Both the position numbers and the translations under genes were made by a program. Source: Gracilaria domingensis (taxonomy: Eukaryota; Rhodophyta; Florideophyceae; Gracilariales; Gracilariaceae). From it: a stretch of DNA of 64,000 nucleotides. Shown here one piece after another: positions 179 to 58,503 of the stretch. The first letter of the stretch is position 1; each line of letters begins with the position of its first letter. The notes beneath the pieces are model-generated. The model was not told the origin of the DNA. It ran no database searches and worked only from the letters and a program-made list of their open reading frames with translations. The stretch is taken from contig VCMS01000185.1 of assembly GCA_022539475.1 (NCBI GenBank), positions 69,111 to 133,110 of the forward strand, given 5' to 3'.

Positions 179-568
179 TCATGTCCCTTGTTCTGTAGCG
201 ACAATCTGTGACTCGTCTCCAAGTGCAATGGGAACCGAGCATGATTTGATTCCGTGGAAATCCTTATGGTCAGGGTTGAGATGGGTCGTTGTACCCGAGT
301 CATGCATGACGAGCTCATCCGAACTTGGGCGCGCCAGCATTGCATGGGCGACAGAAGCTCTAGTTCGATGGTTGCTTCCAGAATTTGCAGATTTGTTGGA
401 CTTCTGCCTGCTATTGGGTGTCTGGTAGCGAGATCCACAACTGTTACTGCTATCATTTCTTGTATCCTTCTCCGAATCGCTCAGGTTGAGACGATTCTTG
501 GGATTCTTCGGATTTAGAAAACAGTTGGAAGTGGTATGGTTTCGTCTCTTACAGACACCACACTTCAA
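179..568 (-). pseudogene. Copia family B zinc knuckle and start of aspartic protease
   Basis: The minus-strand frame begins KCGVCKRRNHTTSNC, a CX2CX4HX4C zinc knuckle of the Gag nucleocapsid. After a Ser/Asn-rich linker comes ELVMHDSGTTTHL, the D-S-G active-site region of a retroviral-type aspartic protease. The frame is lost near the left part of the window, where integrase would be expected to follow. Being downstream of gag on the same strand, it is the continuation of the polyprotein. Confidence 0.75.
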
Positions 569-1178: not shown

Positions 1179-1303
1179 TGTGAAAAGAGAATTTTGTCAA
1201 ACGGAAGGGATAACGGAAAGAAAGGAAAAGGATTAAAGGGAGAGTGAAGGAAAGAAGGAATGCGAAGAAACTGAGATGTAAGTAATTAGCGATGCGTAAA
1301 GGC

Positions 1304-1319
1304 GAGCGGGATCATAACG
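1304..1319 (-). other. Primer-binding site of Copia family B (half-tRNA type)
   Basis: Directly after the LTR, the minus strand reads CGTTATGATCCCGCTC. It is a mutated form of GGTTATGGGCCC, the complement of the anticodon arm of eukaryotic initiator tRNA-Met. Drosophila copia is known to prime from an internal tRNA-iMet fragment at this arm. Other copies of the site are at 14727 and 15653. Confidence 0.6.
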
Positions 1320-1540
1320 TGTCAGTACAGTTGAACTTCAGAGAAGAGCTCGGGTGAAACAAGGTAAGAAGAATTTGTTTCATCCGGTCTTTATAGACAT
1401 TGAGAAAGTCTCGTAAGCATAGTAGTGAACTCAGAGACTGGTAGGTTACGACAATAATTTCAAATTCAAACTCAAATACAAATACAAATACAAATGCGAG
1501 TAGGAATTCAAATACGAATACATGTGATCTAGTGCTCACA
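1320..1540 (-). repeat. 5' LTR of Copia family B
   Basis: Read on the minus strand it begins TGTGAGCACTAGATC and ends CTGTACTGACA, i.e. TG...CA termini. It aligns along its whole length with the LTRs at 14512-14726 and 15671-15885. An AAATAC/AAATTC-rich tract lies near the start in all copies. Confidence 0.9.
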
Positions 1541-13153: not shown

Positions 13154-14516
13154 ATGTGGTAACTTCCAAACGACCTGCGACAAAATCAGCCTCTACACCC
13201 CTGTCCTCAATTTCGAGCTGTTTCGTCTCCTTCTGTTCTACGCACAGTCGCAAGGGTGGGACCGTCAACAAGTGGACATCACGGGTGCCTTTCTTCACGC
13301 CACAATACCGACTGACAACCCCATCTGGATTCGCCTACCAACTATACCTGGCATTCCGGAAGCTGATGGTCGTGTTGTACAGTTGGTCAAGTCACTCTAT
13401 GGCACACGAGAGGCTCCCCGTCTGTGGTTTGAGAACCTCTCTGCATACCTACTGTCTATTGGACTCACTCAGGCTACGTCGCATCCATACCTGTTCACGT
13501 ACACGTGCTCTGATGGCACGCTGATCCTGTTGGCCTATGTCGATGACATTTGTATTCTTGGCCGGGCTAAACTAACAGCGTGGATGAAACGTCAGCTCTC
13601 GGCGAATTATGAAGTTAGTGACCTTCAGAATGCTGACTTGTATCTCGGAGTCTCGATTGAAGACACAGTGTCTGGAATTCGTCTGCACCAGCAGCCACTC
13701 ATCGAGAATATAATTCAACAGACCAACATGAGTGATGCTAATGCAGCCGCCGCCCCTCTACCCGATGGACATCCACTCTATGAAGCCCGAGTCGTACCAA
13801 GCCCAGATGAAGAGTCTATCATGGCCACCGTTCCATACCGGCAAACGCTTGGTTCCTTGCTATTCTTGAGCACTCGCACGCGTCCTGACATCGCCACTGC
13901 TGTGTCTATGCTAGGAAATTTTGCATCACAACCGCGACCGGAACACTGGCAGGCTATGAAGCATCTTGTTCGTTATTTGAAGGGAACGCGCTCCCATGGC
14001 ATATTCATACCGCCGGATGTTGGCTCTAATGTCGTTGCTTGGACTGATGCTGATTGGGCGAGCGATCTTGACAAGCGCCGATCCAAGGGGGGATATGTAC
14101 TCTGTATGGACACTGTTCCAATAATTTGGAGCTCTAAACTCCAGAAGTTTACAGCACTCTCAACATCCGAAGCAGAGTTCTTTGCTATGTCTGAATGTAT
14201 TCGCGAACTGAGTTGGGTGCGCAACGTACTCCAAGAAATTGGTGCACCAGTAGCGTATGAGATCTCCGTCCATCAAGACAATCTGGGAGCTATCTGCTGG
14301 TCCAAGGAGTACTTGGGTTTGCGTCGGGTGAAGCACATCGATCTACGCTATCACTACGTTCTTGATGCCTTGAAAAACCATTTTGTGAAGGTACAGCACA
14401 TACCATCTCCTCAGAACAGGGCCGACGTCTTCACAAAGTCTCTGACTGGCTTACTTCTTGTCAGTCACCGCGATGCTCTGTGCAAATCTCCTATTCAAGG
14501 TCGAGGGGGGGTGTGA
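13154..14516 (+). CDS. Copia family B RT and RNase H fragment
   Basis: An open plus-strand frame without its N-terminal part. It begins in RT with ISLYTPVLNFELFRLLLFY and QQVDITGAFLHA (first catalytic Asp). LLAYVDDICILG at about 13530-13565 is the YVDD active site. RNase H follows: VAWTDADWASD, TALSTSEAEFFAM, HQDNLGAIC and LRRVKHIDLRYHYVLD. It ends RADVFTKSL and a short tail running into the polypurine tract and LTR. No stops, unlike most neighbours, so this lineage was recently active. Integrase and protease are absent, and the 5' end is fused to an inverted LTR. Confidence 0.9.
14503..14511 (+). other. Polypurine tract of Copia family B
   Basis: GAGGGGGGG directly before the LTR that starts TGTGAGCACG at 14512. 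Confidence 0.8.
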
Positions 14517-14726
14517 GCACGAGAGCACATCCATTCGTATTTGAATTTCTACTTGAATTTGTATTTGTATTTGAGTTTGCATTTGAATTTATTGTCGTGA
14601 CCTACCAGTCTCTAAGTTCACTACTATGCTTACGAGACTTTCTTAATGTCTGTAAAGACCGGCTGAAACAGAGTCTTTTTACTTAGTTTCACCCGAGCTC
14701 TTCTGTGAAGTTCAACTGTACTGTCA
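14512..14726 (+). repeat. Complete Copia family B LTR, plus orientation
   Basis: 215 bp, TGTGAGCACG...CTGTACTGTCA. It serves as 3' LTR of the pol fragment to its left and as 5' LTR of the gag fragment to its right, as expected for a one-LTR circle or tandem junction. Confidence 0.92.
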
Positions 14727-14740
14727 GGTTATGGTCCCGC
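14727..14740 (+). other. Primer-binding site of Copia family B
   Basis: GGTTATGGTCCCGC directly after the LTR, complementary (with mismatches) to the initiator tRNA-Met anticodon arm. Confidence 0.7.
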
Positions 14741-14863
14741 TCGCTTTTGCGCATCGTTAATTACTTCTATCTCAGTTTCTTCGCATTCCTTCCTTTATTC
14801 TCCCTTTAATTCTTTCTCTTTCTTTCCTTAATCCCTTTCGTTTGACGAAACTCTCTTTTCACA

Positions 14864-15520
14864 ATGGAAACTGAAATAATTCGCATCAAACCCTTCGAAG
14901 AGAAGGATGACTACAAGCTTCGGCGCATTCGTATCGAAGCTACATGTGACGCCGAAGGAGTCGGAAACGCTCTTCTAATTTCGCGTAATCCTTTCAGCGC
15001 TGATGATGAATATCGTGAAGAGTTTATTCGAGCACAGAAGAAGGCAAGTAGCATAATTGTGTCTGCACTGTCGAATGAAGCATTAAGAGTGGTCCGAACA
15101 GAAATTAGTAACCCCAACAAAATGCTAAAAGGGCTAGACAACCGATATGCCTCGACCTCAACTGCTTCTTGTATATCCAAGATTTGTGAGCTTGCGACAC
15201 TACGATACTCTGATGTCTCCAAAATTCTTGGTAAGAATGCTGACAAGATGGCCAGCTTAGTTGAACAACTCAACAGCATGGACATGAAGCTACCTGAAGA
15301 ACTCTCTGTTGCACTTCTTATGGCATCTGTAAAAGCACCACAGCTACATGCAGTGTGTGCTGCTATTAAGATTGTACCATCCGAGAATCTTACTTGGGAT
15401 TTGATTACATCGCGTCTACTCGATGATCTGCGCACTAGCAGAACCGAAAAAGCCCATGCAGCAAATCGAAGTGTGGTATCTGTAAGAGACGAAACCATAC
15501 CACTTCCAACTGTTTTCTAA
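14864..15520 (+). CDS. gag: Copia family B Gag
   Basis: 218-codon frame starting METEIIRIKPFEEKDDYKL, about 120 bp after the primer-binding site. Main blocks are RIRIEATCDAEGVGNAL, SALSNEALRVVRTEI and MASLVEQLNSMDMKLPEELS. It ends before the zinc knuckle because of a frameshift: the expected KCGVCKRRNH-type block is present as CKRRNHTTSNC-like DNA near 15475-15520 in another frame. Gag forms the particle and binds RNA. It matches the decayed copy at 565-1178. The gag sequence stops at 15621 where an LTR end is fused. Confidence 0.85.
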   Translation: METEIIRIKPFEEKDDYKLRRIRIEATCDAEGVGNALLISRNPFSADDEYREEFIRAQKKASSIIVSALSNEALRVVRTEISNPNKMLKGLDNRYASTSTASCISKICELATLRYSDVSKILGKNADKMASLVEQLNSMDMKLPEELSVALLMASVKAPQLHAVCAAIKIVPSENLTWDLITSRLLDDLRTSRTEKAHAANRSVVSVRDETIPLPTVF

Positions 15521-15621
15521 ATCCGAAGAACCCCAAGAATCGTCTCAACCTGAGCGATTGGGAGAAGGATACCAAAAAAGATAGCAGTAACCGTTCTGAA
15601 TCTCGCGACCAGACACCCAAT

Positions 15622-15652
15622 AGCTCTTCTGTGAAGTTCAACTGTACTGTCA
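15622..15652 (+). repeat. LTR 3'-end fragment, plus orientation
   Basis: The last 31 bp of the family B LTR are joined to gag sequence. Intact gag would continue ...AATAGCAGG where this reads ...AATAGCTCTTC, so the junction has a short AGC microhomology. Confidence 0.85.
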
Positions 15653-24840: not shown

Positions 24841-26361
24841 CTATTGCTGGGATCCTACACAAGTTAACCTGTGTTCCTCCAAGTCAGCAATCTTCCGAAA
24901 ACGGCGACCGCAGCCAGGACATGTCAGTCGTCTTCTCTGCTCATGGATTTTGTTGTGCTGCCTGACTTGCGACATATTGAAATGCGAATAACCACAGCCC
25001 GGCTCAGAGCAGCGGTGGTATGATTTGCACACCCGTATGTGCTCGGCCATATCAACCACGCTTTTGCCGCAACCTTTGCAGGTTGTTCTTCTATCATGAG
25101 ACCGTATTCTACTTGCAGAAGCCTGTATCCTACTCGCAGAAGCCTGCAACCCACTCGCAGAAGCGTGGGATCCGCTGGCAGAAGCGCGTAATCCACTCGA
25201 AGAAGCTTGTAATCCACTCGCCGATGCCTGTCCTCCGCTCGGTGGATGACCGGCATGCGGATGCGCCTCTTCATTTCCCGGGGTCACAATTTTCGTGCAA
25301 CCTTTCATATGTCTTGTCAGACCGGCTTTGAGTACAAAACATCTGCCACAGGCCCAGCATTCCCATTCGTGTGTCTCCTTCGGCTTGTGAAACTTTTCAT
25401 GCCTCTTGAGACGGGACAGAAAATAGTGTGAATATCCGCAGCCTGGCACAGAGCAGTGTAGTCTACAGGTCCTTCTGTGCTCGTTCAGATCATGCACCCA
25501 TCGATCGCAAATTCTACAACGTGTCCTTGACGGCTGTCCTCTCCCCGCAGGACCCGAAGGGAGAGCATCTCGGAAGCCTGATGAGCTCAGGCCTGCGACT
25601 AGAGCTACAGAGTCGGATGAGCTAGGGCCTGCAGCTGCTGTGCCGAAATCAGATGACCCGGCAACTGGAACTGAAGCTCTAGGGCTAGGTGCAAATGAGC
25701 TAAGATCTGCAAAAGCTTCCGCCGCTCGCAAAGCTTGCTGCTCAAGCGCATCAGCCGCTGGTCCCCCTTGTCTTCCGCTTTCTTCTTCTCCAATCGTTCG
25801 AACCGCATTCCTGTCGTCCCCAGCCTGTCGAGAGGAGGCACAAGATCTACGCCCTTGGCCCCCTGACCCGGATGATGGATAAAACAGATCCTCAATCGGA
25901 TCGGGTTCAGAAAGAGATGAGATCACAGCAGTGCTACTCCTTGGACGCCATCCAGACTGCCCAGAAGAGGTACCAGATCTATATCCTTCGCCATCTGCTC
26001 TCAATCTAGACGACGGACTTTCTAAAGCCTGGTTCAAAGGCCTTGCTCGAAACAAATTGGAGTGGGATTCGCTTTCAGGCTGCGGAGCCGAACCACTTGG
26101 TGGACTTACGCTGCTATACAACCCAGACTGGACTAGATCACTAAATAAATCGTTAATATCTGTACTTCTTTCGATATCCTCGGTTGTATATCGTTGAAGA
26201 TCATATTCTTGTCGTGAACTTGAACTTGAGGTTTCCCGCTGATTGTTCCTCCTTGACTTTTTCTTTCGACCTAGATTCTTGTCTATTGCACGTACTAATC
26301 GTCTTCTATTGTCTTCGCCGTCCCCTGCCCCACCGGAAGAAGCATGCGAGTACGAACTCAT
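24841..26361 (-). CDS. C2H2/C2HC zinc-finger protein, 506 residues
   Basis: Intact minus-strand frame; the ATG at 26361 gives MSSYSHASSGGAG, matching the start of the gene at 38884. Residues 29-44 are basic (LGRKKKSRRNN, likely nuclear signal). Residues 50-275 are Ser/Gly-rich and disordered. Two sets of three zinc fingers follow (about 282-355 and 428-501). Each set has a CX2C...HX4C finger, a CX4C...HX3H finger containing PGCGYSH, and a second CX2C...HX4C finger. Between them (377-420) lie about seven copies of a seven-residue ASASGLQ-type repeat. A nucleic-acid-binding nuclear role is likely; the target is unknown. The order suggests an internal duplication of the finger triad. Confidence 0.85.
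   Translation of the reverse strand: MSSYSHASSGGAGDGEDNRRRLVRAIDKNLGRKKKSRRNNQRETSSSSSRQEYDLQRYTTEDIERSTDINDLFSDLVQSGLYSSVSPPSGSAPQPESESHSNLFRARPLNQALESPSSRLRADGEGYRSGTSSGQSGWRPRSSTAVISSLSEPDPIEDLFYPSSGSGGQGRRSCASSRQAGDDRNAVRTIGEEESGRQGGPAADALEQQALRAAEAFADLSSFAPSPRASVPVAGSSDFGTAAAGPSSSDSVALVAGLSSSGFRDALPSGPAGRGQPSRTRCRICDRWVHDLNEHRRTCRLHCSVPGCGYSHYFLSRLKRHEKFHKPKETHEWECWACGRCFVLKAGLTRHMKGCTKIVTPGNEEAHPHAGHPPSGGQASASGLQASSSGLRASASGSHASASGLQASASRIQASASRIRSHDRRTTCKGCGKSVVDMAEHIRVCKSYHRCSEPGCGYSHFNMSQVRQHNKIHEQRRRLTCPGCGRRFRKIADLEEHRLTCVGSQQ
25085..25235. repeat. 21-bp coding minisatellite in the zinc-finger gene
   Basis: About seven units of a 21-bp repeat built on ACTCGCAGAAGCCTG on the plus strand. 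They encode the ASASGLQ heptads between the two finger sets. Likely to vary in copy number between strains. Confidence 0.7.
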
Positions 26362-26812
26362 TTGTATTTCAGGAGTGGAAAGGGTTTTCAAACGTTTTGT
26401 TTCTCAGTCTCTTGCGTTCTTTGTGTGTTTCTCTGTTTCTTTCTCTAAACCAGGATGTGCAAGTTTCAGGAAGGGGTTCATGTAGTTATAGTCCCACAAA
26501 CTGCCTCTCCTGCTATCATGCAGAGCATTGCGTTTAGAAAAGGCCGCGTTTTGGTTTGGCAGAGGGACTGGACATATTCTTCATTTCCTTTTTCATATAA
26601 TGTGAAATAGTGAATTACATTGACTTCTATATATATGAGTACAAAATGTGAAAAAAGAAGAAGAACGGACTTCTGGGAATGACATGAGAAGGTGGACTAT
26701 CTGATTCTAATTAATTTTCCAGAGTTTACTTGTTAGTAATAGACGCGGTAACTCGGAACACAAATTCTATCAACATACTATGTTGACATCATTTCTTACG
26801 ATACCTACATGA

Positions 26813-37915: not shown

Positions 37916-38884
37916 CTAACTGTGGAACCGTTGGGAAAGACTTCGTCTGCAGCGTTTGACGTGATCGATGTACTGAGACAGCGGCACCGTCTTGCGGCAC
38001 TCCAGGCACTTGCCCTGCTGCCGATGACCCATCCGATGAATCCTATAATCTTCTGGATCAACGCATCGGAAGCGGCATTCAAAGCAATGACGGAAACCAT
38101 CCTTATCATGAACTTGCCTCACGTGGGCGGAAAGATTCATCCAACTTGCGTACTTCCGGTTGCAGTGAGGACATGAAGGTGTAGACTCAGATGCGGAGAC
38201 TATGACTCCCGCTGTAGACGAACTTGCAGTCGTGGTCCCTGACGCGGGTGCGTTGCGATAACCATGACGCTCGCGTAAGTGGCTCCTCATCGCTGACAAA
38301 GAAGATGTTGAGAAGCTGCAGTACGCGCAATGACGAAACTCCAGGAAGTCATGCTTCCTATACACATGCAATTCACGACTTTGATGCCGGTCAAACACTC
38401 TGTTACAGTGTCCGCACGGATATGAACCGGAAGATGGCCCAGAACTTGCACCAGCGCCAACTGTACGAGGCAACGCAGACGAACTGGCACCCGTGCCGGC
38501 TGTATATGGAGGTAACGCCTGTGAGCTCGAATCGGCCCTAGATGTGGGAGGAGGTACCGACGAAGTAGCTGCGTCTAGATGCCTGTCTTCAAGCAACTGG
38601 TCGAGAAGTGATGGCGGTGGCAGCGAAATCTCTGCATCAGGAGGCGAAGTCCCCATTTCTGGCTGACACATCGCTTCAATCCACGAAAGTGAATCGGTAG
38701 AGGCCGATGATAGGCCACCGTGGCTACCGCTCTGATATGCCTGCTGTATCCTTTCAGCACGTTCTCTCTCCTTACGCTTGTTCGCCCTTTTCTCCGCACC
38801 TTTTTTGTTCAATCCGAGACTACTTCTGTCAGACGGCGGCCTCCCGCCGTCGCCTCCTGAGGCACTGTGGTGGTAGGAGCTCAT
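37916..38884 (-). CDS. C2H2 zinc-finger protein, 322 residues
   Basis: Intact minus-strand frame, ATG at 38884. It starts MSSYHHSASGGDG, like the zinc-finger gene at 26361, so the two are related. Residues 27-46 (KKGAEKRANKRKERERAERI) are highly basic, a likely nuclear signal. After a Ser/Pro-rich region come fingers at about 157-178 (CGHCNRVF...HVYRKH), 186-207 (CAYC...HLRERH), 238-259 (CPHCNRKY...HVRQVH), 267-287 (CFEC...HRMGH) and 293-312 (CLECRKTV...HVKRC). Probably a DNA- or RNA-binding nuclear protein. It lacks the internal heptad repeat and triad duplication of its relative. Confidence 0.85.
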   Translation of the reverse strand: MSSYHHSASGGDGGRPPSDRSSLGLNKKGAEKRANKRKERERAERIQQAYQSGSHGGLSSASTDSLSWIEAMCQPEMGTSPPDAEISLPPPSLLDQLLEDRHLDAATSSVPPPTSRADSSSQALPPYTAGTGASSSALPRTVGAGASSGPSSGSYPCGHCNRVFDRHQSRELHVYRKHDFLEFRHCAYCSFSTSSLSAMRSHLRERHGYRNAPASGTTTASSSTAGVIVSASESTPSCPHCNRKYASWMNLSAHVRQVHDKDGFRHCFECRFRCVDPEDYRIHRMGHRQQGKCLECRKTVPLSQYIDHVKRCRRSLSQRFHS

Positions 38885-46738: not shown

Positions 46739-47454
46739 TGTAGAGCAAAACTTCTTTTTCGGGGAAAGCCGCTAATAGCGCTTCATAACTGCTAGATCCG
46801 TTGCGACGGTAACACCCTCGGTTATGAGTATCGGTAGGGAGAATTGGCCCATTTTGGGAGCCTATCGGAGAAGGGTATAGTTTCCGGACACGGGTAGTGT
46901 TGCCGCCCCTGGCGGACGCCCCGTGAGTCAAGGGGGTACAGTGAGGCACACGTGGCCAATACGGGCCACGGTGCTAGCAGTGACTAGTAGTCTAGGGTAG
47001 CTTAGTGCCAATATTTAGGCGACGGCGACCGCCGTCGCCCCCACTAAATAAACCCCAACAAGGGGAATCTTGGCTATAACTAGTTCCGCTGGTGAACGGT
47101 TCTACTCTATTGTGGAGAGTATCGCCACTACTCCGGTGTAGTTATCCCCCCTTGCCCGCCAAGGAACCACTGTCCGTACGCTACGGTATTACTTACTGCT
47201 TTTATTGTTTGTTCCTGTGTTGTTACTCTTAAGTTGTTTACCCACCGTTGTGGTGTGTTCCGCCCTGTGTATACAGGTATACCCAGCGCTGTTTTCGCCA
47301 TCCACCCCTGTTTCCTGGGTTTGTGTCCCGCGTACACGGCCCAACTTCCCCGTTCCTTTCCCCTTTTTATCCCCGCTAATTCGGATCTTCCCACTCTGGT
47401 GGTGTGCCCCCGCCTCATCGGGCCCACCACATTCGTGGATCCTCCTGACTCACC
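46739..47454 (+). mobile_element. LTR-like sequence of the TGTAGAGCAA family, left part
   Basis: Starts TGTAGAGCAAAAC. It shares with the 9275-10170 insertion the block GGTGTAGTTATCCCC, a GGCGACGG/CCGTCGCC hairpin followed by CTAAATA, and a CTCTTAAG block, in the same order. It is interrupted at 47455 by the chromovirus. The right end may be CGCTCTACA at 58503. The flanks GAAAA (46734-46738) and GAACA (58504-58508) would be an imperfect duplication. Confidence 0.5.
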
Positions 47455-47995
47455 TGTGATATAGTACGTATCGGGAGAAAACCCGAAGCGGTCTTGAGGC
47501 GACGGAGTTAGCTGCGGCTCGAGGGAGCGACTGTAATGAATCCGTACGGGGAGTAAGGAGGAAGCACCGGGCGGTCAGCGGGGAGAGTGGGCGGTTGGTA
47601 TCACCAAGCACGTTCAGGAGCGTGCAAAAGGGTACGAACGGCCTAATAAACCTTGTAGTACTTAGCTTAACGGCCTGTCGGTAGCGCTACTTGACGAGCA
47701 AGACGTACGGCAAAGGGTGCTTGGTGTTTACAACGTGAGGTCATGGCGAGGTTGGGGTCTACCTAAATATCGGGTAAACCCGCCTCTGTGCAGCCTCTAG
47801 GTAGCAACTTACAGTACTATATTACGCCTGTCACCGTCCGACCGGCACACGTGTCCTACGTACGTTTGGGACCGATATCCGATGCAGGGACAATCACGCG
47901 TACAACTATCCGCTCGGGCTAGCCCGACACGTACGACACGGCACTCCTCTCAATCCACTCCGTCCGTGCGGTCAGCCAGATCGTGCTATACGACA
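47455..47995 (-). repeat. 3' LTR of the chromovirus
   Basis: On the minus strand TGTCGTATAGCACG...CTATATCACA. It aligns with 57824-58346 over its whole length. Confidence 0.92.
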
Positions 47996-48008
47996 GATCC
48001 CCCTCCTT
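47996..48008 (-). other. Polypurine tract of the chromovirus
   Basis: AAGGAGGGGGATC on the minus strand, abutting the 3' LTR; it sets the element orientation independently of the coding sequence. Confidence 0.8.
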
Positions 48009-48013
48009 AGATT

Positions 48014-48033
48014 GCACTCCGTCCTCGGAGTGC
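48014..48033. repeat. Perfect hairpin beside the polypurine tract
   Basis: GCACTCCG, loop TCCT, CGGAGTGC. By position it could be an RNA signal near the end of the element; function unknown. Confidence 0.5.
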
Positions 48034-48826
48034 AGCCCAGTGCTGAGCCCAAGTCCGTTCGGCTGAGAAGAAGCCACCGATCGTTTCTTTCACAGAAAGT
48101 GCCCGCCACGGGCGGGGCGAAGCCATGTGAGAATTACACGCGTGGCGTGGGGGAGCGGCGGAGCTAGTAGAACTGAAACAGACCGCTGGCGACAAGGGCG
48201 CTATGGGTGGCGCGTGGCCCGTTTCCGTTCATGGAACCGCCAATGCGGCGACCGAGGGAAAAGCTCGCGTGAAGGCGGCTGCGCCCGACTATGAGGGACA
48301 CCGACCACCATGGTGGTAGGTACGCGGTCAGAACTGACACTTCCGCGTCCAATTCGCGAAGCGACGGAAGCGCCCGATGGTGTGCAACCGAGCGGTCACG
48401 GGGGCGCACGAATCCTCCTCCTTCGCACGCTACGGCGCGTTCGCGGCCGGTGAGACGCGCTCATGTCCGTTTCGGGTCGGTACCGTGTGGTACGCGCGGT
48501 GCGCGCGCCGCGACGGACACTGTCCCGCCTTGCGACCTTCCGACGATAGTGGCGACGACAGCGAAGGCCGATAGCGAGGTTGTGCGCGTACTGGCTATGC
48601 GACTGCGCTCGCGGCGCGGCGACTACCACGTCGGATGCGTTCCGAGCGGGAATGGGCTTTAGCCGTCACGGAAAGGGGTGGATGTACAGTGATCATGCCC
48701 GCTCGGAAATAAATTGAGGTGTATGAGGCCTCAAAGTGTACGTATCGGTACGAGCGATATCGCTTTTCGCGAGGTCCCGAACGCCGTCCGTCTTAGCCCG
48801 TGCATCTCCGTGTCGTACTTCGCGGC
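48034..48826. promoter_or_regulatory. Upstream region of the antisense gene
   Basis: 793 bp of GC-rich DNA between the polypurine tract and the TATA-like box of the plus-strand gene. Frames here are low complexity. It probably serves as promoter for the plus strand and 3' untranslated region for the minus strand. Confidence 0.4.
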
Positions 48827-48833
48827 TATAAGA
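48827..48833 (+). promoter_or_regulatory. TATA-like box of the antisense gene
   Basis: TATAAGA within GCGGCTATAAGAGCTCC, 38 bp before the ATG at 48865. With the usual 25-30 bp to the start site, the leader would be about 10 nt. Confidence 0.55.
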
Positions 48834-48864
48834 GCTCCCTTCCACCCGTCATCCGTTGCCCCCG

Positions 48865-51204
48865 ATGGGTTCGCAATCAAGCCAGTCGTCCGCCTCGCCG
48901 TCTGCGATGGCGAGTAATCCGAATCAACCGAGTGTGTCCGGTGGCGGCGGTCCGTTTCGGTCTATGCCGCTTCCTGGTCAGCACTTCGACCATCGTAGTC
49001 GTCGTACGAGCCAGGCCCCGCGTCGGTCGAAGCAGGTTCCGATCACGGTCAACGAGTACATTCAGGACAATGCGGAGTACTTCGATGCGCGTCGCTTCGC
49101 AGCCATTCCGGTCTCGCTCCCATTACGTGAGGTGGCGAGCCGTAACCCAAAGCGTACGCGAATGGAAGCTTGGCAGGCACGTTGGAATCACCTTCCTGGA
49201 ATCGTCGGTCGTGCGGACGAAAGGACGTTCGGGATAGCCGATATGCCGTACTTAAGGTGCCCCGAGGAGCGCGAGTATCAACGCCGACTTCAGAGCCTGA
49301 TGCACCGGCTCAATTCCGACGCGAACTTTCCGCCCGAAAACGGTAACCCTCTCGCGTTGGTGATGTTCGAACCGCCGTACGACCAGCTGTACTGGTTAGA
49401 CCGCGAGCATTGGGGGAGCAACGCCGCGACGGAAGCCCGCATCCGGGGTTCACACCGTTTCTTCTACTCCTGGCACAACGTCGAGTACTTCGACGTCGCG
49501 AAGAACGACCGTACGACGGTATACTACGGTATGACCGAGGCGTGGAAGTCTGTGGAGGTCGAACGCAACCTTTCCGTACCGACGCCGTCCGTGGTGGCAT
49601 ATCATTCGCGGGAACTGCTATCCCAAGGAGCGTTGAGCCGTGCGGTCTTGCAGATCCTGTACGCCGAGTGGGCAGTTTTCGCTTTCATGGCGTTCCTCCA
49701 GGCGGCCAGCGACGGTGTGAAAGTCTTCACCCGTGCGGGCGATCAGCGCCTGTACAACACGGACGATTCGCCGCAGTACGGACGGTTGTTCCCTCTCCCG
49801 TACAAATTGGTATGCATCTTGGCCGAAATGGGGTTGCAGAACATCCTGCGGGGGACCTCTTACCCCCCTGCGGTCGGTGAGAAGCTCCTTCAGTACTCTT
49901 TGGAGACGGACTGGTCGCAAACGCCGGGGTTCCTCTGGTACGATTACTTTGAGGACTCGTTCCCTACTATGCCCGCATCCGGTACGGGCGCGTTGCCGAT
50001 CGACCGAGTGCTATTGCCAACGGGACAGCTTCCGCCTTGGCCATTCGCGGATAGGCCGAACTACTTCCCGCATGGGTACATGGAAGAAGACTTCGAAGCC
50101 GCTCCTCCAGTGCCGAGGCGTGAGAGCGGGGTCCAAGCCGGTCTGCCTCAGTTATCCTCTGCGGCCGAGCCGGAGCCTGATCCGGAGATCGTGGAGGTAC
50201 CTGTGCGTACGGAGCGAGAGGTCCAGGTCGGGCTCCCAGGCCGCCAATTGGACGCAATGGGTGTCGAAGTCTCTGGCGAGCGCCTCCAGACGTTGCTCAA
50301 CGCCTTGCGGGCTGTATGCGTTCCGCGTGGGATTCCGGAGCCGACTGACGTGCCGGGCGCCCTGACGGCTGCGCGTACTTGGGTGCGTCGCGCGGCGAAC
50401 TCCGAAGCGTGCCTGCGTGAGCAGGCTCAGGGCATGTTGGACCTACTCGGTTACCTTCGCGAACACAGCCTGCGCGTTCTCGGTTCGTACGAGCAGGGTA
50501 TGCTGGCCGGTTTCGGGGAGGGTACTGCGCCGGACGGACAGGTTATGGAGACGCAGGCTCCGACGTTGGACGAGTTGGTCGGTGAGTCCTATCAAGGGTT
50601 GCACGACCAGGCCACGGTGGAGAATCAGGTCAACCAGATCGTTCAGAACCTGAGACGGGCGCGTGCGTCCATGTTTGACGGGGTCACTCTGAACCCTCCA
50701 GCACCTCCGGTGAGTCCGGAAGGAGCTGGGGGAGACGGTGGTGAGGCTGTCGCCGGTACGGAAGGTGTCGCTGCGACGGGGGACGGTGGCGCTCAAGCGT
50801 CCGGTGCCGGTGCTGTAGCAGTTGGTGACGACGTGGAGCCCGGGGATATCCCAATGGCGGAAGTTGCGTCCGGTGTGGAAGCTCCTAGCGCTCCTGCTCC
50901 GGTGACGCCAGGTACCGGTGCGGGTGCGTCAGGCGTGGTTGCCAGTGACGTTCCGGCGGCGAGCGCGCCTAGTCAGCCGCAGTCATCCGTGAGGGTCGTG
51001 GTAGCCAACGCTCCTTGGCCGGGTACTTCAAGTCCGTTCCAGCCGGTCAGTTCCCGAGGGGGCTCGGCGTCGGCCTACCGTTCGGGCATTCCGACACCTC
51101 GTGGGGGGCGTGGTCGTGGTGGTACGCGTGGCCGTGGTCGTGGCGTATCCAAGACGTTGCCGGCAGTGAAGAGTATCCAGAAGAAGGGACCGGGTGGTGC
51201 GTAG
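48865..51204 (+). CDS. Convergent antisense gene of the chromovirus, 779 residues, RGG-type C terminus
   Basis: Intact plus-strand frame opposite to gag-pol, between the polypurine tract and the end of pol (stop codons about 70 bp apart). ATG at 48865 (MGSQSSQSSASPSAMASNPN). The N-terminal 60 residues are Ser- and Arg-rich. About 60-400 looks globular (ITVNEYIQDNAEYFDARRFA, YSWHNVEYFDVAKNDRT, YRLFPLPYKLVCILAEMG-like). About 460-620 is helical. About 640-730 is Ala/Gly/Pro/Val-rich and acidic. The end (TPRGGRGRGGTRGRGRG) is an RGG box that usually binds RNA. No zinc knuckle, envelope-type signal peptide or enzyme motif. A second structural/RNP protein or a regulator is possible; function unknown. 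No family recognised. Confidence 0.85.
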   Translation: MGSQSSQSSASPSAMASNPNQPSVSGGGGPFRSMPLPGQHFDHRSRRTSQAPRRSKQVPITVNEYIQDNAEYFDARRFAAIPVSLPLREVASRNPKRTRMEAWQARWNHLPGIVGRADERTFGIADMPYLRCPEEREYQRRLQSLMHRLNSDANFPPENGNPLALVMFEPPYDQLYWLDREHWGSNAATEARIRGSHRFFYSWHNVEYFDVAKNDRTTVYYGMTEAWKSVEVERNLSVPTPSVVAYHSRELLSQGALSRAVLQILYAEWAVFAFMAFLQAASDGVKVFTRAGDQRLYNTDDSPQYGRLFPLPYKLVCILAEMGLQNILRGTSYPPAVGEKLLQYSLETDWSQTPGFLWYDYFEDSFPTMPASGTGALPIDRVLLPTGQLPPWPFADRPNYFPHGYMEEDFEAAPPVPRRESGVQAGLPQLSSAAEPEPDPEIVEVPVRTEREVQVGLPGRQLDAMGVEVSGERLQTLLNALRAVCVPRGIPEPTDVPGALTAARTWVRRAANSEACLREQAQGMLDLLGYLREHSLRVLGSYEQGMLAGFGEGTAPDGQVMETQAPTLDELVGESYQGLHDQATVENQVNQIVQNLRRARASMFDGVTLNPPAPPVSPEGAGGDGGEAVAGTEGVAATGDGGAQASGAGAVAVGDDVEPGDIPMAEVASGVEAPSAPAPVTPGTGAGASGVVASDVPAASAPSQPQSSVRVVVANAPWPGTSSPFQPVSSRGGSASAYRSGIPTPRGGRGRGGTRGRGRGVSKTLPAVKSIQKKGPGGA

Positions 51205-51272
51205 ACGGTTCCAATGTCGTGCGTGTCCTTGAGTAAACTTGTGTTGTTGTGTGCATTCTTCCTTTGCGTACG

Positions 51273-53483
51273 TCAGGTTGAATCCGTTGACGTAAAGTGC
51301 CGATATCGGAAAAGGCGGCGTTTCGCTAGATCGAAAAATAAAGGGGGTGAGCCAATGAGCGTACGGTTAGGGCGAATATCCGGCCAACCGTCGCGCGTCA
51401 GTGGTCGTATCCGTGTCGGTTGGAGCCCGTCACGTGCTTGGGGAGTAGGTGGCGTTTGTCCGGCCGACGGACTTCCGTCTGCTTCTCTCCCCCTTCTTAA
51501 GGGTGTTGCCGATGTCGTACGACTTCGGCGACGCCAGTATCGTGCGACAAAGTGCTGCGGGATGTTGGAAGGGGGTTCGTAGGTGTCGGATTCGGCGGTG
51601 TAGCCGTACCAGCGTACGCGGTATTGGACTCCGTCCGGCCTATCGCGGTGCGCTACGACGCGTTCCACGACGCAAGGAACCGTATCGGGTGGCGGTAAAT
51701 CGTCGCGGTCGACGACGTCGTCCGCGAATGGTCCCTCCGGGTCAGCGACGGGTTCCTCCCGTGTACGTTCGGTGGTAACGGGGCTACTCGTAGGCCGTGC
51801 GGACGGGGCGCGTGTGACGCGATCAATGGAGACGGTGTGTTCGATACCGTTTTCATCGATAGTAACGGTAGTGTCCGTTGTGGCTTTGACCTTGAACGGA
51901 CCGGTGGTCTTCGGCAGTAGTTTCCGAAGAGTTCGTTCCTGTTCCGTTAGGTCCTCTTCCGTGCTTTTGTAATTGGGTCGGTCAATGTACACTTCCTCGC
52001 CTTCCGCGAACGTAGGGCGAAACCGGACGGTCCTATCGAAGTCGTCTTTGTAGCGCTGCTGTGCGCGTGTCAGCTTTGTCCGCGCGGTCTGAAGCGTCGC
52101 CTGTAGGAGTTTGAGTGTGTATCGCTTCAACTGGGCTGCGGACGGCTGAGTCGGTGTTGCAGGGTCCAAGGACGTACTGGGTTCGTCGATGAGGACGCTG
52201 GGGGGTGTCCTCGTTAGTGCGACCGCGAACGGGGTGGTTCCGATGGACCTATGGACCTGGAGGTTATATCCGTACGTAAGGGGTTGGACATATGCGTGCC
52301 ACGTCCTTTGGTGGTCTGCTACGTAGTGGCGGAGGCGCTCCACCAGCGTCTTGTTGAACCGTTCGGCCTGCCCGTTTGTCTGGGGGTGATACGCAGTGGT
52401 CGAAACGTGCTTCGTGCCCAGTGCGGAGCAGACGGCCTCGAAAAACTTCGACGTGAACTGCGGTCCGTTGTCGGTTAGTAGGCAGTTCGGGATGCCGTAC
52501 GGGTAAACCCAATGTTCCAAGAACGTTTTGGCTACCACTGGGGCGGTGGTTGACCGCAGCGGTATGGCTCGCGAGAGCTTGCTAAACCGATCGGTCATTA
52601 CCAGGATATACTGGCATCCGTTAAGGGATCTGGTAAAGGGTCCCACTATGTCCATGGCAATAAACTCGAGCGGACCAGCTGCTGGGAAGAGCTTCAGCAG
52701 CTTCTGGGACCGATAACGGGTTCCTTTGACGGCTGGGCATGACCGACAATCCCGTACGGTCTGGAAGACGTCGTTGGCCATGTGGGGCCAATAGAAGTCC
52801 CTCCGTAGTGTTTCGTACATTCTGGTGGCACCAGGGTGTCCGACCAAGCGGGGATAGTGCGCCAGGTAAAGAACGCGTGCCTGCAGGGACTCGGGGACCA
52901 CCTTCTGTAGGGCGCCGTCCAAGCCTGAGCGTCGTATGAGTACTCCGTTTCGGTCGACATCGAACAAGGTAACCCCGTTGCCGACATCTCTCCGTACGGA
53001 TTGGCAGAAAGGGTCCTGCGCCTGAGCTCGTACGAGTTCCTCGAGCGTGATGGGTACGATTTCGGTTTCTTCCGTGGGCAGTGCCAGCACTTCCGGTATT
53101 CCTGGTGATTCCCGTTCGGATCTTGGCCAATCTATGCAGACGTTCGTATATTCTTGTCCGTCTACGGTGATGTTGGCTATAACGAGGCCGTCGTCCGGAC
53201 GGTCGTCGATGACGAAACAGGGGACCTCGTCGTCTAGCGGTGAAGTGTCCTCTCCGTCCGTTTGGATTCGTGAGAGTGCATCTGCCGCTCGGTGTTTGAT
53301 ACCCGGTCGGTGAATGACGTCGAAGTCGTACTCCATCAGGCGTAGGCGCCACCGTGCGAGTCGCCCTGAGGCGTCCGCTAGGTTCAGTATCCACTCAACG
53401 AGTGGTGATCCGTGCGAACAGTGAACTTCTGTCCTTCCAAATACGGTCGGAGGTGCAGGATAGCCCATACTACAGCGAGGCAT
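51273..53483 (-). CDS. pol: Chromovirus end of RNase H, integrase and chromodomain
   Basis: 736-codon minus-strand frame. Residues 26-60 are the end of RNase H (EWILNLADASGRLARWRLRL, HRPG). The integrase zinc domain has H209, H216, C246 and C249. The catalytic core has D278 (AMDIVGPF), D338 (LTDNGPQFTS) and E374 (GQAERFNK), i.e. D-35-E spacing. Residues 604-650 are a chromodomain (VVERVVAHRDRPDGVQYRVR then WYGYTAESDTYEPPSNI), which in this branch directs integration to marked chromatin. The frame is joined to RT by a one-base shift near 53395. Integrase joins cDNA to the target. Confidence 0.92.
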   Translation of the reverse strand: MPRCSMGYPAPPTVFGRTEVHCSHGSPLVEWILNLADASGRLARWRLRLMEYDFDVIHRPGIKHRAADALSRIQTDGEDTSPLDDEVPCFVIDDRPDDGLVIANITVDGQEYTNVCIDWPRSERESPGIPEVLALPTEETEIVPITLEELVRAQAQDPFCQSVRRDVGNGVTLFDVDRNGVLIRRSGLDGALQKVVPESLQARVLYLAHYPRLVGHPGATRMYETLRRDFYWPHMANDVFQTVRDCRSCPAVKGTRYRSQKLLKLFPAAGPLEFIAMDIVGPFTRSLNGCQYILVMTDRFSKLSRAIPLRSTTAPVVAKTFLEHWVYPYGIPNCLLTDNGPQFTSKFFEAVCSALGTKHVSTTAYHPQTNGQAERFNKTLVERLRHYVADHQRTWHAYVQPLTYGYNLQVHRSIGTTPFAVALTRTPPSVLIDEPSTSLDPATPTQPSAAQLKRYTLKLLQATLQTARTKLTRAQQRYKDDFDRTVRFRPTFAEGEEVYIDRPNYKSTEEDLTEQERTLRKLLPKTTGPFKVKATTDTTVTIDENGIEHTVSIDRVTRAPSARPTSSPVTTERTREEPVADPEGPFADDVVDRDDLPPPDTVPCVVERVVAHRDRPDGVQYRVRWYGYTAESDTYEPPSNIPQHFVARYWRRRSRTTSATPLRRGREADGSPSAGQTPPTPQARDGLQPTRIRPLTRDGWPDIRPNRTLIGSPPLFFDLAKRRLFRYRHFTSTDST

Positions 53484-54589
53484 TCCCGTTCGGTCGTTGA
53501 ATACTTTCGCTCGGTCTTGGTTAGCGAGCGGCTCCAGTATCCGATTGGGAGAAGGTCCCCATCGGGTTGCCTCTGGAGGAGGGCACAGCCAACCTGACGG
53601 TCACACGCGTCGGTGTCCAGTACGTATGGATATCCTTGTTTCGGGATAGCCAGTATCGGGGGCCGTACCAGGCGTTGGCGAAGTTCGTCGAATGCCTCGT
53701 ATTCCGTATCGGTCAGGGTTTCGAAGCTAGTAGGCTGCCCCTTTTCCAGTTTCTGATTCAGGGGAGCCGCTATCCGTGCGAAGTTCTGTACGAACCGGCG
53801 GAAGACGTTGCAAAGACCCAGGAACGAGCGGAGTTCCGTTTGCGTAGTGGGCGGCTTCGCCTGCTTGATGGCCTCCTGCGTCTTCGTAGACACCTGTAGC
53901 TTGCCCGGACGGATGATATGGCCGAGGTAGTCGACCGTTCCACTAAAGAAATGACATTTGTCCAGTCGTAGGGTAATTCCTGCGGAACGTAGCATGTCGA
54001 GGATTGTCCGTACGTGTTCGTAGTGTTCTTCTATCGTTCTGGAGTAGATGATCACGTCATCCAGGTAAACCAGTGCGTACTGCCACTTAACACGTGATAG
54101 GATGATGTCCAGAGCCCTCTGGAACGTAGCCGGGGCGTTCTTGAGTCCAAAAGGCATCCGTACGTAGCGGTAGAGGCCCATGTGGGACGTGAAGGCTGTC
54201 TTGTCCCGGTCGGCTTCGTCCACTTCGGTCTGCCAGTATCCGCTATTGGCGTCCAGTGTGGAGAATATCCTTGCGTCTCCTAACGAGTCTATGCACTCGT
54301 CCATTCTTGGCAGAGGGTATGTATCCCGTACGGTCACGGCATTTAAACGGCGGTAGTCGACGCAAAAACGTAGGCTTCCATCTTTCTTCTGTGCAAAGAC
54401 GACCGGACTGGCCCATTCTGCGGACGATGGTTCTATCACCCCTGCTGCCAGCTGTTGGGTTATCTCCTTACGTTCAAGTTCCCGTCGGGCGGGTCCTGCA
54501 CGGTAAGGCATCTGGAATATCGGCTTGGTGCCGGGTTCCAGCTGTATCCGATGCTTTGCGGCGGAGATCTTGCCTAAATGGCCATCCAC
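53384..54589 (-). CDS. pol: Chromovirus reverse transcriptase and RNase H start
   Basis: 401-codon minus-strand frame without its own true start. RT motifs in order: SPVVFAQKKDGSLRFCVDYR (61-80), FSTLDANSGYWQTEVDEADR (catalytic Asp), MPFGLKNAPATFQRALD, and YLDD at 175-178. The connection region follows (LRSFLGLCNVFRRFVQNF). RNase H begins at YVLDTDACDRQVGCALLQ and has STTERECLAVVWAI, then VRTDHH where one base is missing; the next frame continues SPLVEWIL. Copies element RNA to DNA in the particle. All catalytic residues are present, so the break is the main defect. Confidence 0.92.
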   Translation of the reverse strand: MDGHLGKISAAKHRIQLEPGTKPIFQMPYRAGPARRELERKEITQQLAAGVIEPSSAEWASPVVFAQKKDGSLRFCVDYRRLNAVTVRDTYPLPRMDECIDSLGDARIFSTLDANSGYWQTEVDEADRDKTAFTSHMGLYRYVRMPFGLKNAPATFQRALDIILSRVKWQYALVYLDDVIIYSRTIEEHYEHVRTILDMLRSAGITLRLDKCHFFSGTVDYLGHIIRPGKLQVSTKTQEAIKQAKPPTTQTELRSFLGLCNVFRRFVQNFARIAAPLNQKLEKGQPTSFETLTDTEYEAFDELRQRLVRPPILAIPKQGYPYVLDTDACDRQVGCALLQRQPDGDLLPIGYWSRSLTKTERKYSTTERECLAVVWAILHLRPYLEGQKFTVRTDHHSLSGY

Positions 54590-55610
54590 ATGTCCTTGAA
54601 CGGTCGGAGGAGTTCAATGACTGTGTCGCGTTCTTTCTCATACTCGGGCTGATTTGAACGCGTTGGGGCCAATCGGGCTGGTCAGAACGCCGTGGAGGTT
54701 GGTCCAAAGCGGTATCTTCTAAAGCGGTATCCTCCCCCTCCTGAGAGTCGTCGCTCCGCGGCCTAGCTGGGTGAAGGGGGGTGATTAGTGCTATAGGGGA
54801 CGGGAGGGCGAGACCGATGACGGTACGTTTGTGGAGGTGCACCGGTCGGTCCGAGACGTTAGCAACTTGAACGAAGAAGGGAACGTCCGGACGTAGATCC
54901 ATGACGCCGTTCGCGAGCAGTGTTAGCTCTAACGAACTGCCCGTGCGGTGGTGTGATTGTAGAAATACCAGACCGGACGCCTTGGTTGTTACTTGTACCC
55001 TGGTTTCGGACATGGGGGTAACGTAACGGTCGGGCGACGTGTATCTTGTTAGAGGGCACATTCCGCTCCGGTTGGACTGGGTATTTCCGTACGGACGTGG
55101 GCGTGTGGGGACCGTACGCGTGGGACAATATCGAGACAGGCCGTGAATGGGCAGGAGGATCGTCCCGTTTTGGGGGTAAGATTCCAATACGTATCGATCG
55201 ATAAAGGACGTGCCGAGTAGGACGCTTGTGGCGAGGTTCGATACCACAAGGAATTGTACTCGTACGTGAAGGTCTCCAATGCGGACAGCAAGCGGGAGAA
55301 CACCCACGACCTCCATACGGTTGCGTGAAGCGTCCGTAATGCGTGGCTTTACGTCCGTTCGGAGACGAGATTGCCATCGCGGTAGAAGGTGCCGCTCGTG
55401 GATCAGAGAAGGACCGGCTCCGGTATCTAGAACACCCGTGAGCGGATACATTAGGGTAGATGTGAGGCCCACGGAAAGGTGAACTTGTAATTTGCACTCG
55501 CGAATAAAACAGTGTCGTCCATACGTTTCGGGGTGTCGAGAGTCAGGTCTGTTCTGTCCGCACTGGTTGGTTTGGGCTTGTCGCCCGGTGTGGGCGAGGC
55601 TATCCGGCAT
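54590..55610 (-). CDS. pol: Chromovirus aspartic protease and linker
   Basis: Minus-strand frame upstream of RT. TGVLDTGAGPSLIHERHL (D62 in the DTGA active-site loop) and SVLLGTSFIDRYV are the two halves of a retropepsin fold. A long linker to RT follows. Near 54650-54590 the reading passes through two frames (NQPEYEKERDTVIELLRPFK, then GHLGKISAAKH), so at least two one-base shifts lie there. The enzyme processes Gag-Pol. Confidence 0.8.
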
Positions 55611-57775
55611 CGGAGGAGACGACGCCCCTACGCATCCTCCGGCTCGTTTTCCTGTTCCAAAACGGTCTCTTCCACCAGCATGGCTGCCTGCCGAGGCTGG
55701 GCGTAAGAGGTACTACTCGGGCAATATTACGGAAACCGATATTGGATGGCGGTGGCGTGTTTCTCCGTGTGGATATGCCGGTGCCGTAGTACCCTTCGTC
55801 GCGCCGGCGTTGGTAGTTTTGCTCGCGGATTGCGAGGAGTTTAGCTTTAACGTCCGGTGGGAGAAGTTGACAGCAGTTCGGCTCTCGCGAGAGCCAAATC
55901 CTGCACGGACGGTCCCTTGACGCCGCGCCAGGGGGGTTGCTCGATCTTGGCGGGCGTACTGGGGAATGACCGTGCGGAAGTCGCTGGGGTGGTTGCACTG
56001 GTGTGGTGGGTGGTGACGGCATGGAAGACCCCTGGGAAACGATGAGGACATCTTCGCCGTCGTCGTCCGACAGGGAATCGTCGAGGCCGAGGGGGACTCG
56101 ACCTGGTGCACCTTCCTTATCGTACGAGTGGCACGAGGCCGAGCAGACGTAGTCTGCGTGTGTACCCGAACGGACTGGCGGCGTGAGGCGCGGTGAGTAT
56201 CGCCGTACGATTCCGCATAACGGGCGAGCGCGTCGTATCCGATACTGGGATGGGTGGTGAGGTGATTCCGCACCTTTGACCGTATGGCGGGCAAAAGTCC
56301 TTCGACAAATAAGCCCTTCAGTCCCGATCGGTGTATACGTTACCACAGCGGAGGGCTTTCGTCCAGAGCTTCTGGGCGAATTCCGTTCGGACATCCCTGA
56401 CGACTGGGTGTAAAACGTCACCTCTGCGGAGCGTGGGATGACTTCATTCTCGGTTGGCGTAAGGTGGTCAGTAAGAAATTACACCTCTTAGTACGTTGGA
56501 TGCGCTTTCTGCGAGCCTGTCAACGCGTCCCGAACTCCCGATGAGCGGGATTGGACAGAGCGTGGTTGCGGGCCGGTTAGGTAGAATGAAGCAGCCACAG
56601 GTGCCGCTCTCTGTCAGTCCGTTACTGGTTTGCACAGCGGTTTTGAACGCTGCCAGAAATTGAGAAGAAATGGGATCCGTTGGAAAATGAATTCATTCTC
56701 ATCTGGACGTTAATTTCTTTTGATAGCGCTGCGATCTTGCGTGCCTACTTCGAGTCGTACTATGCTGCGCGAATGACGTACGTACGGTGTTCCACAACCT
56801 TGGTGAACTTGACGTTCAGAGATCGGAGGCGCTTAAGCGTCAACTTGTCCGATGGGAACGTCGCCGTCGGACTTGCCGTTTTCTTCGGGGGCTTTGAGAG
56901 TCCCAGAGTCATCCGAGTCGGTCTGCTCATCCTCTGATGATGAGCGCGAGGACGCGGAGTCAGTATCTGAATGTCGTCGCCTCTGCGGCGGACGATTCTT
57001 CGTATACGTACGGAATGTCCGAATGGAATGCTGCTCGTTTATCTGCTCGTTGCGTGATTCCTCCGTCGTCTGAGGAATCGGCTCGAGCGTTCGTTTTACG
57101 GTCATCCTGGGGGGGTACTGGTGGGAGATAGCAGGTCGGATCCCTCTGCGGATCCTTCTCATTTGCCGGTCCTGTCTCTCCGCGACTGAGTGCGATTGTC
57201 GTTTGGTCCGTTGTCAAACTTTGGGTTTGGGTGGTAGCATTAGGCTAAAGCGGCCAAGTGGTTACTCAGGATTCTCTTCATTCAGCTTTCGTACGTTGAT
57301 CCAGCGCATCGTTCGTGCGGTGTATGATGGTGTGATGGTCAGCGACGCACAATTCGGGATACGGTCCTTGGATATATTTGACCGGCATGGTAATGACCTC
57401 GATCTCCGTGCGAAGTCTCAGGGGATACGGGGCTATTTCGGCCCATTAGTTGTGGGTGTCCTGGTCCGGTCTGAGGATAGCGGGATGCGCCGTCCAGGGT
57501 GGTACAATCTCAGTTATCAAAGGGGGGCCGGAGTTCTTTACTCCCTCTTTTCTTCCTTCGGTCCGATTTTGTTTTGCAGTTGCCTTCACGGATTGACCGT
57601 TCGGCTCTTCTGAGGGGTCATCGTAGGCGTCCGGTAGCTCGGGTGTGCTCGGCGGCACGGCTGGTCGAAGCGGGGCGAGGGCGGCATAAGTGACTCGAGC
57701 ATTGTTTCTGCCGCCATGCCGTTCTTCTTGATCTCCGTGTGGGAGTTTCGAGCTCATCTTCGAGTATCGTTTCAT
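55600..57775 (-). pseudogene. gag: Chromovirus gag, several frames
   Basis: Likely start ATG at 57775 (MKRYSKMSSKLPHGDQEERH), 48 bp after the 5' LTR. The first frame runs to a TAA near 57446, beyond which the same frame continues (WAEIAPYPLRLRTEIEVITM). Next come the acidic Ser-rich region near 57162-56833 and a capsid-like end near 56320-56200: LFVEGLLPAIRSKVRNHL then YDALARYAESYGD, the pattern at the end of Ty3/gypsy capsids. A Pro-rich C terminus follows to about 55600. No CCHC knuckle seen. At least three frame changes. Packages element RNA. Confidence 0.65.
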
Positions 57776-57823: not shown

Positions 57824-58346
57824 TGTGATATAGTACGTATCGGGAGAAAACCCGAAGCGGTCTTGAGGGACGGAGTTAGTGCGGTCGAGGGAGCGACTGT
57901 AATGATTCGTACGGGGAGTAAGGAGGAAGCACCGGGCGGTCAGCGGGGAGAGTGGGCGGTTGGTATCACCAAGCACGTTAGGAGCGTGCAAAAGGGTACG
58001 AACGGCCTAATAACCTTGTAGTAGTCTAGACTTAACGGGGCCTGTCGTGCGCTACTTGACGAGCAATGACGTACGGGCAAAGGTCTTGTGTTACACGTGA
58101 GGTCATGGGAGGTTGGGTCTACTAACGTATGTAACCGCTCTGTGGCAGCCTCAGTTATCAACTTACAGGTATAACTGTACGTCCTGCAGCGTCCGACGAC
58201 CGGCACCGTGCTCTTACGTAGTTTTGGACCGATTATACTGATGCGGGGACAATCGCGTTAAACTATCGCCTGGCCAGCCGACAGTACGGACACGCATCTT
58301 CAATCCAACCTCCGTCGTGCGGTCACCAGATCGTGCTATAACGACA
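57824..58346 (-). repeat. 5' LTR of the chromovirus
   Basis: Same sequence as 47455-47995 but 18 bp shorter. Most differences are single-base gaps, strongly biased to loss in this copy. Confidence 0.92.
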
Positions 58347-58503
58347 TACTCGCTGCAAGTCAGGAAGAGTTCGCCGGAGTTAAGGCGGCACGTGTGCCCT
58401 CAGGAGGGCTTATCTGCTGGCCACTTTAGGGAGAAGCTGAAAACTTGAGAGGCAGCGCCGCGCGTGGTTTTTGTCTCTTTCCGCGCAGTGTTTTCGCTCT
58501 ACA
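58347..58503 (+). mobile_element. Possible right part of the interrupted LTR-like sequence
   Basis: Ends TTTTCGCTCTACA, the inverse of the TGTAGAGC start at 46739, followed by GAACA. Assigned only because of the end motif and near-duplication; the interior was not aligned. Confidence 0.35.

What the first reader, a model, noticed from the sequence alone, without database searches (positions are those of the whole stretch)
48865..51204. Intact 779-codon gene running opposite to gag-pol inside a chromovirus
The element orientation is fixed by pol and the polypurine tract (minus strand), yet the space between pol and the 3' LTR holds a long open plus-strand gene with an ATG and an RGG-box end. 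Stop codons of the two strands are only about 70 bp apart. Antisense genes in this position are known from a few plant elements (e.g. Grande, RIRE2), but I do not recognise this protein and know of none in a chromovirus of this kind. pol has frameshifts while this gene has none, which hints at selection.
Basis: partly seen in the sequence, partly recalled or inferred. Interest (0 to 1): 0.88.

Follow-up and report, generated by a model that had tools for sequence, protein, structure and literature searches.

The report
Conserved antisense gene in algal retrotransposons
A family of jumping genes, probably in a red alga, carries a large gene read from the opposite DNA strand, which many copies keep intact under selection although nobody knows what its protein does.

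Summary
A 779-codon plus-strand ORF (48865-51204) lies between pol and the 3' LTR of a minus-strand, chromodomain-bearing Ty3/gypsy element. It is neither a one-off nor a chance frame. The same genome holds 74 matching stretches; 13 of 19 rows covering at least 750 residues have no stop. Relatives down to 28% identity occur in all four RT identity groups (100% to about 64%), antisense to pol wherever I could see both. Of 103 RT places, 63 have the gene antisense downstream; none of the other 40 has it in sense. Between subfamilies dN/dS is 0.16-0.30, similar to gag. The gene stays 93-94% identical where 540 bp of adjacent spacer is unrelated; about 150 bp just upstream, with a TATA box, is conserved, suggesting its own promoter. 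The protein has a conserved helical domain (pTM 0.84, no fold match), a predicted coiled coil and often an RGG tail. I read it as an accessory RNA-binding protein. The gene and the selection are shown; the function is inferred. Antisense genes at this position are a known kind (Grande, RIRE2, Retand, Boty).

The parts
48865..51204 (+). antisense gene (aORF), 779 codons plus stop
49030..50064 (+). conserved mostly helical domain, about residues 56-400; 42 columns invariant in 11 aligned sequences; domain model pTM 0.84
50275..50673 (+). long helices, predicted coiled coil, residues 471-603 (low confidence)
51100..51144 (+). RGG box, residues 746-760
   Evidence: sequence
48715..48864 (+). conserved upstream block (87-93% identical to three copies of another subfamily, next to a 540-bp stretch at 43-64%), candidate promoter of the aORF
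48827..48834 (+). TATA box (TATAAGAG) 38 bases before the ATG
51337..51342 (+). AATAAA, candidate poly(A) signal of the antisense transcript, inside the 3' end of pol; AATAAA or ATTAAA within 700 bp of the stop in 6 of 11 copies examined
51273..53483 (-). integrase with C-terminal chromodomain
53384..54589 (-). reverse transcriptase and RNase H
54474..55610 (-). protease region (weak Pfam match, below the curated cut-off in this copy)
   Evidence: above the RVP cut-off in another copy
55600..57162 (-). interrupted gag region; a 602-aa gag frame is open in two other copies (L011, L022)
47455..47995 (-). 3' LTR
57824..58346 (-). 5' LTR (86.5% identical to the 3' LTR; 16 mismatches, 56 gap openings)
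47999..48009 (-). polypurine tract

Best explanation
The ORF is a standing, element-encoded accessory gene of a clade of chromodomain Ty3/gypsy retrotransposons, probably in a red alga (Gracilariaceae). It runs convergent to gag-pol and is most likely transcribed from its own TATA promoter in the 150 bp upstream of the ATG. The protein has a conserved helical globular domain, a predicted coiled-coil region and, in several lineages, an RGG tail. I think it most likely works as an oligomeric RNA- or RNP-binding factor that acts in trans on the element's RNA: regulation, nuclear handling, or protection from silencing. Shown: the gene, its position, its copies, selection on the protein. Inferred: transcription and promoter use, oligomerisation, RNA binding, role. 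I put the gene itself at about 0.95, own promoter at about 0.6, and an RNA/RNP-binding accessory role at about 0.5.
For: Copies: 74 matching stretches, 13 of 19 rows covering at least 750 residues stop-free. A distant lineage gives 24 of 34 full-span rows stop-free. Relatives at 28-44% full-length identity, antisense beside other pol lineages. 63 of 103 RT places have it antisense downstream, none of the other 40 in sense. Selection: dN/dS 0.20-0.30 between subfamilies and 0.164 against L028, with 131/87/315 changes by codon position. Yardsticks: gag 0.28-0.30, RT 0.07-0.14. The ORF is conserved where the neighbouring spacer is not. Upstream block and TATA. Domain model pTM 0.84. RGG-type tails in the window copy, L018, P0001, L027 and L032.
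Against: No transcript or protein evidence. The RGG tail is missing in L026, L029 and L031. The TATA is absent in L018 and in the four more distant copies examined (L026, L029, L031, L032). A TATA only 38 bases before the ATG leaves a very short leader. 40 of 103 RT places showed no aORF nearby; three of these were read and look truncated or decayed, 37 were not read. Among the youngest copies dN/dS is 0.43-1.21 and inside the next subfamily (without L028) 0.19-0.50. Besides the 19 rows, three slightly shorter rows (723-748 residues) all have stops.
Confidence: 0.6

Rival explanations
1. The antisense RNA itself is the functional product (self-limiting dsRNA/silencing or interference with gag-pol), and the protein is incidental.
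For: Convergent transcription from the conserved upstream block would overlap the gag-pol RNA (inference). Antisense RNA roles are discussed for plant elements (PMC7264820, whole text).
Against: Constraint follows codons: against L028, third positions change 2.4 and 3.6 times more often than first and second positions, and dN/dS between subfamilies is 0.16-0.30.
Confidence: 0.08
2. A host gene, or a gene from an unrelated element, was captured by one element and is copied along as a passenger.
For: It lies on the opposite strand and shows no similarity to the element's gag, so it came from somewhere. Capture once, long ago, remains possible as the origin.
Against: It is found in all four RT identity groups, at constant spacing within a lineage (14 places at 2158-2186 bp from RT in the 64% group), and under selection. 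No homologue outside this family was found in Pfam, PDB or a 5.8-billion protein set (word-limited search) except P0001, whose genomic setting is unknown.
Confidence: 0.1
3. It is a structural, gag-like or env-like protein: part of the particle rather than a regulator.
For: Helical domain + coiled coil + basic RG tail is a layout that a nucleocapsid-type protein could have. It is about as constrained as gag.
Against: The element has its own sense gag of 602 aa, without similarity to the aORF. No capsid fold was matched, which is weak evidence. Env-like genes lie in sense orientation (PMC7264820).
Confidence: 0.15
4. Anti-silencing factor: it blocks the alga's small-RNA or chromatin silencing of the element, in trans (a special case of the best explanation).
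For: Would explain long conservation, own promoter and an RNA-binding tail. No direct evidence from any call.
Against: No domain link to any described family.
Confidence: 0.2

Closest known systems
Antisense aORF-3R genes of Grande, RIRE2 and Retand (plant Ty3/gypsy)
   Same: Between pol and 3' LTR, antisense, in most copies of a family, conserved; Grande's is transcribed from its own promoter and its protein is nuclear (PMC7264820 whole text; PMC11963269 passages).
   Different: Plant elements; Retand is a non-chromovirus lineage, and 97% of its clusters carry the TRP28 domain (PF04195), which no scanned member of our family showed.
brtn of the Boty elements (Botrytis)
   Same: Additional antisense gene in a fungal LTR element (cited in PMC7264820 and PMC8365987; original paper not read).
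Antisense proteins of retroviruses (HBZ of HTLV-1, ASP of HIV-1)
   Same: Gene on the strand opposite to gag-pol; HBZ has a role in the virus life cycle (PMC10186651, abstract read).
   Different: Driven from the 3' LTR; other element type; no sequence comparison made.
Mytilus Steamer-like element MchSLE-1 antisense ORF
   Same: Transcripts in both directions and an antisense ORF (PMC10974842, passages).
   Different: 67-aa ORF versus 779 aa; no sequence comparison made.

Membership tests
Antisense additional ORF between pol and 3' LTR (aORF-3R) | between pol and 3' LTR | tested here: met
   LTR 47455-47995, aORF 48865-51204, integrase ORF ends at 51273; LTR upstream of the aORF also in the close copies
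Antisense additional ORF between pol and 3' LTR (aORF-3R) | antisense to gag-pol | tested here: met
   opposite to RT/integrase in 19 of 20 fetched stretches (no RT or integrase seen in the other); antisense downstream at 63 of 103 RT places, none of the other 40 in sense
Antisense additional ORF between pol and 3' LTR (aORF-3R) | present in most copies of the family | tested here: inconclusive
   21 of 24 RT places in the window's own group, 63 of 103 overall, with capped aORF lists
Antisense additional ORF between pol and 3' LTR (aORF-3R) | conservation like that of gag/pol | tested here: met
   dN/dS 0.20-0.30 between subfamilies; gag 0.28-0.30, RT 0.07-0.14
Retand TRP28 antisense proteins | TRP28 domain PF04195 | tested here: not met
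   no match in the window protein or in the 8 members of A1 and 11 of A2
Chromovirus | chromodomain at the C-terminus of integrase | tested here: met
   PF00385 E 2.1e-10; in two other copies (4.1e-10, 1.8e-6)
Chromovirus | RT phylogeny inside the chromovirus clade | not tested
   no named reference set was built; PMC12477816 (passages) reports chromodomain Gypsy lineages outside that clade
Env-like additional ORF | sense orientation with gag-pol | tested here: not met

The most novel reading that the evidence does not exclude
An entire clade of chromodomain retrotransposons, probably of red algae, has a third, convergently transcribed gene as an ancestral standing part, encoding a protein of a fold not yet described that binds the element's RNA and protects it from host silencing in trans.
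Probability: 0.2. Interest if true: 0.82.

Novelty: new variant of a known kind. Interest (0 to 1): 0.62.

Why it matters
Antisense accessory genes of LTR retrotransposons have no known function (PMC7264820). A large case with more than a hundred natural copies or pieces (157 places), codon-level selection, a well-modelled domain and a compact candidate promoter makes the question testable, probably in a lineage far from flowering plants. It also suggests that this gene position may have been filled more than once with unrelated proteins, which would point to a recurring need of such elements.

Tried and rejected

Considered and rejected: chance frame; aORF as a displaced gag (gag exists, and is not similar); pol frameshifts as evidence for selection (true divergence of the 5' LTR is not excluded, and 5' LTRs of other copies were not read). 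PF04195 over the genome: no match, but the control rang nowhere, so it says nothing. Rfam and tRNA scans of the window: none. In one search one slice (L024) ran across a frame break; I dropped its five aORF rows, and used no row with saturated dS. In one search the L019 slice begins before the aligned start and not at an ATG; its row is kept.

Full report
What is there. The window lies in an assembly of 77.9 Mb in 680 contigs. It holds a Ty3/gypsy LTR element on the minus strand, LTRs 57824-58346 and 47455-47995. Protease, RT-RNase H, integrase and a chromodomain read on the minus strand. Between pol and the 3' LTR, a 779-codon ORF reads on the plus strand, 48865-51204. Base-shuffled versions of the internal region never exceeded 355 stop-free codons in 300 trials; 790 observed. 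That rests on one named hit; the assembly itself is unnamed.

It is a multi-copy gene. The protein has 74 matching stretches in the genome, several being pieces of one copy. Of 19 rows covering at least 750 residues, 13 have no stop; the next three rows by length (723-748 residues) all have stops. Some contigs look like duplicates (pairs of rows with identical scores), so copy numbers are inflated. In a distant lineage (query from L032) 24 of 34 rows that span the whole query (one lacking the last residue) have no stop. In the 20 fetched stretches L009-L028 the aORF is opposite to RT/integrase in 19; in L027 no RT or integrase of this element was found in 9.9 kb.

It belongs to the element. 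I compared 103 RT places (2610 candidates, 103 scored) with 157 aORF places (lists also capped: 58 of 389, 60 of 332, 50 of 1094 and 70 of 549 candidates scored). 63 of 103 RT places have an aORF antisense within 8 kb downstream; none of the other 40 has one downstream in sense; two places have one upstream. By group: 21 of 24 (RT identity 93% or more), 6 of 10 (81-88%), 15 of 29 (65-73%), 21 of 40 (about 64%; two of these rows are really 70-71%). Of the 40 without one, three were read in their 3' part (L033, L034, L035): no aORF, and integrase missing or nearly so. The other 37 were not read.

Divergence follows RT in rank. RT identity to the window and aORF identity to the window: L018 98% and 93%; L028 91-93% and 77%; L026 88% and 35%; L029 71% and 33%; L031 and L032 about 64%, and 33% and 28%. 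The lower steps are close together, and this is a rank statement from tables, not a joint tree. Eleven aligned domain sequences (the window's and ten others, three of them 95-97% identical to it) share 42 invariant columns.

Selection acts on the protein. Nei-Gojobori counts with Jukes-Cantor correction: window versus the 90-94% subfamily (L017-L021, five copies) gives dN/dS 0.20-0.30; window versus L028 gives 0.164, with 131, 87 and 315 changes at codon positions 1, 2, 3. Within the youngest subfamily (six pairs with the window) it is 0.43-1.21 on 8-18 differences per pair; among the five of the second subfamily it is 0.19-0.50. Both fit drift of copies after insertion on top of constraint between active lineages. 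Yardsticks: RT gives 0.07-0.14 (L009, whose RT is 100% identical to the window's, against L017-L020 and L028), and gag gives 0.28-0.30 (L022 and L011 against L018, 454 codons). So the antisense protein is about as constrained as gag and less than RT.

The spacer gives a second view. Between the window and three copies of the second subfamily (L017, L018, L020) the aORF is 83-100% identical per 60 bp, while 48175-48714 is at 43-64%, that is, essentially unrelated. The last 150 bp before the ATG is again at 87-93%. A TATA box lies 38-40 bases before the ATG in six of seven close copies; it is missing in L018 and in the four distant copies examined. This points to a promoter of its own in the close subfamilies and leaves it open elsewhere.

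The frameshift argument does not hold. Over 47452-54500 the window and contig C508 show two indel events (one at the edge of the alignment) and no substitution; differences then rise towards the 5' LTR, and C508 has an open pol frame. The window's 5' LTR shows 56 gap openings and 16 mismatches against its own 3' LTR, while that 3' LTR is 96.7-100% identical, without gaps, to the LTR of seven other copies (L009, L010, L012-L016). Local assembly noise is the simplest reading; real divergence is not excluded. Open gag frames (602 aa) and long open pol frames exist in other copies.

What I think it does. The long helices suggest oligomers, the RG tail suggests RNA binding, and the persistence of a gene as constrained as gag suggests a need of the element rather than of the host. 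An accessory RNA/RNP-binding factor acting in trans is my best reading; regulation, nuclear handling and protection from silencing cannot be told apart here.

What is known. [quoted passage not shown] functions unknown, Grande's with its own promoter and a nuclear product. Vicient 2025 (PMC11963269, passages) reports the TRP28 domain in 97% of Retand clusters; ours did not show it. PMC8365987 (passages) confirms brtn as an additional ORF of Botrytis elements. The listings of searches showed no report of such a gene in red algal elements; they cover an open-licence library and most listed papers were not opened. So: a known kind of gene position, filled here with a protein family that I could not assign.

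Noticed in passing
window 48013-48034: A perfect 9-bp inverted repeat with a 4-base loop lies right next to the polypurine tract (by eye); 47995-48114 is 87-90% identical to three copies of another subfamily.
   Followed up: partly
window 48175-48714: About 540 bp between LTR and gene is essentially unrelated between subfamilies that are 93-94% identical in the gene: a swapped or hypervariable module.
   Followed up: partly
window 47450-47454 and 58347-58351: No matching target-site duplication flanks this copy, and the stretch after the 5' LTR shows no obvious tRNA-type primer site (by eye).
   Followed up: no
window 51273 onwards: In the window copy and a few others pol reads about 60 codons further at its C-terminus than in most close copies, where that stretch is in another frame.
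   Followed up: partly
L027 1522-3984: An open aORF with no RT or integrase of this element within 9.9 kb; a weak protease match on the same strand follows, perhaps another element.
   Followed up: no
window 24841-26391 and 37916-38884 (minus): Two ORFs with zinc-finger-like Cys/His repeats and similar stretches near their starts (MSSYSHAS / MSSYHHSAS) (by eye).
   Followed up: no
window 410-1540 and 14512-15624: Inverted copies of about 1.1 kb at 88% identity; an ORF at 13272-14516 between them looks like a copia-type RT (by eye).
   Followed up: no
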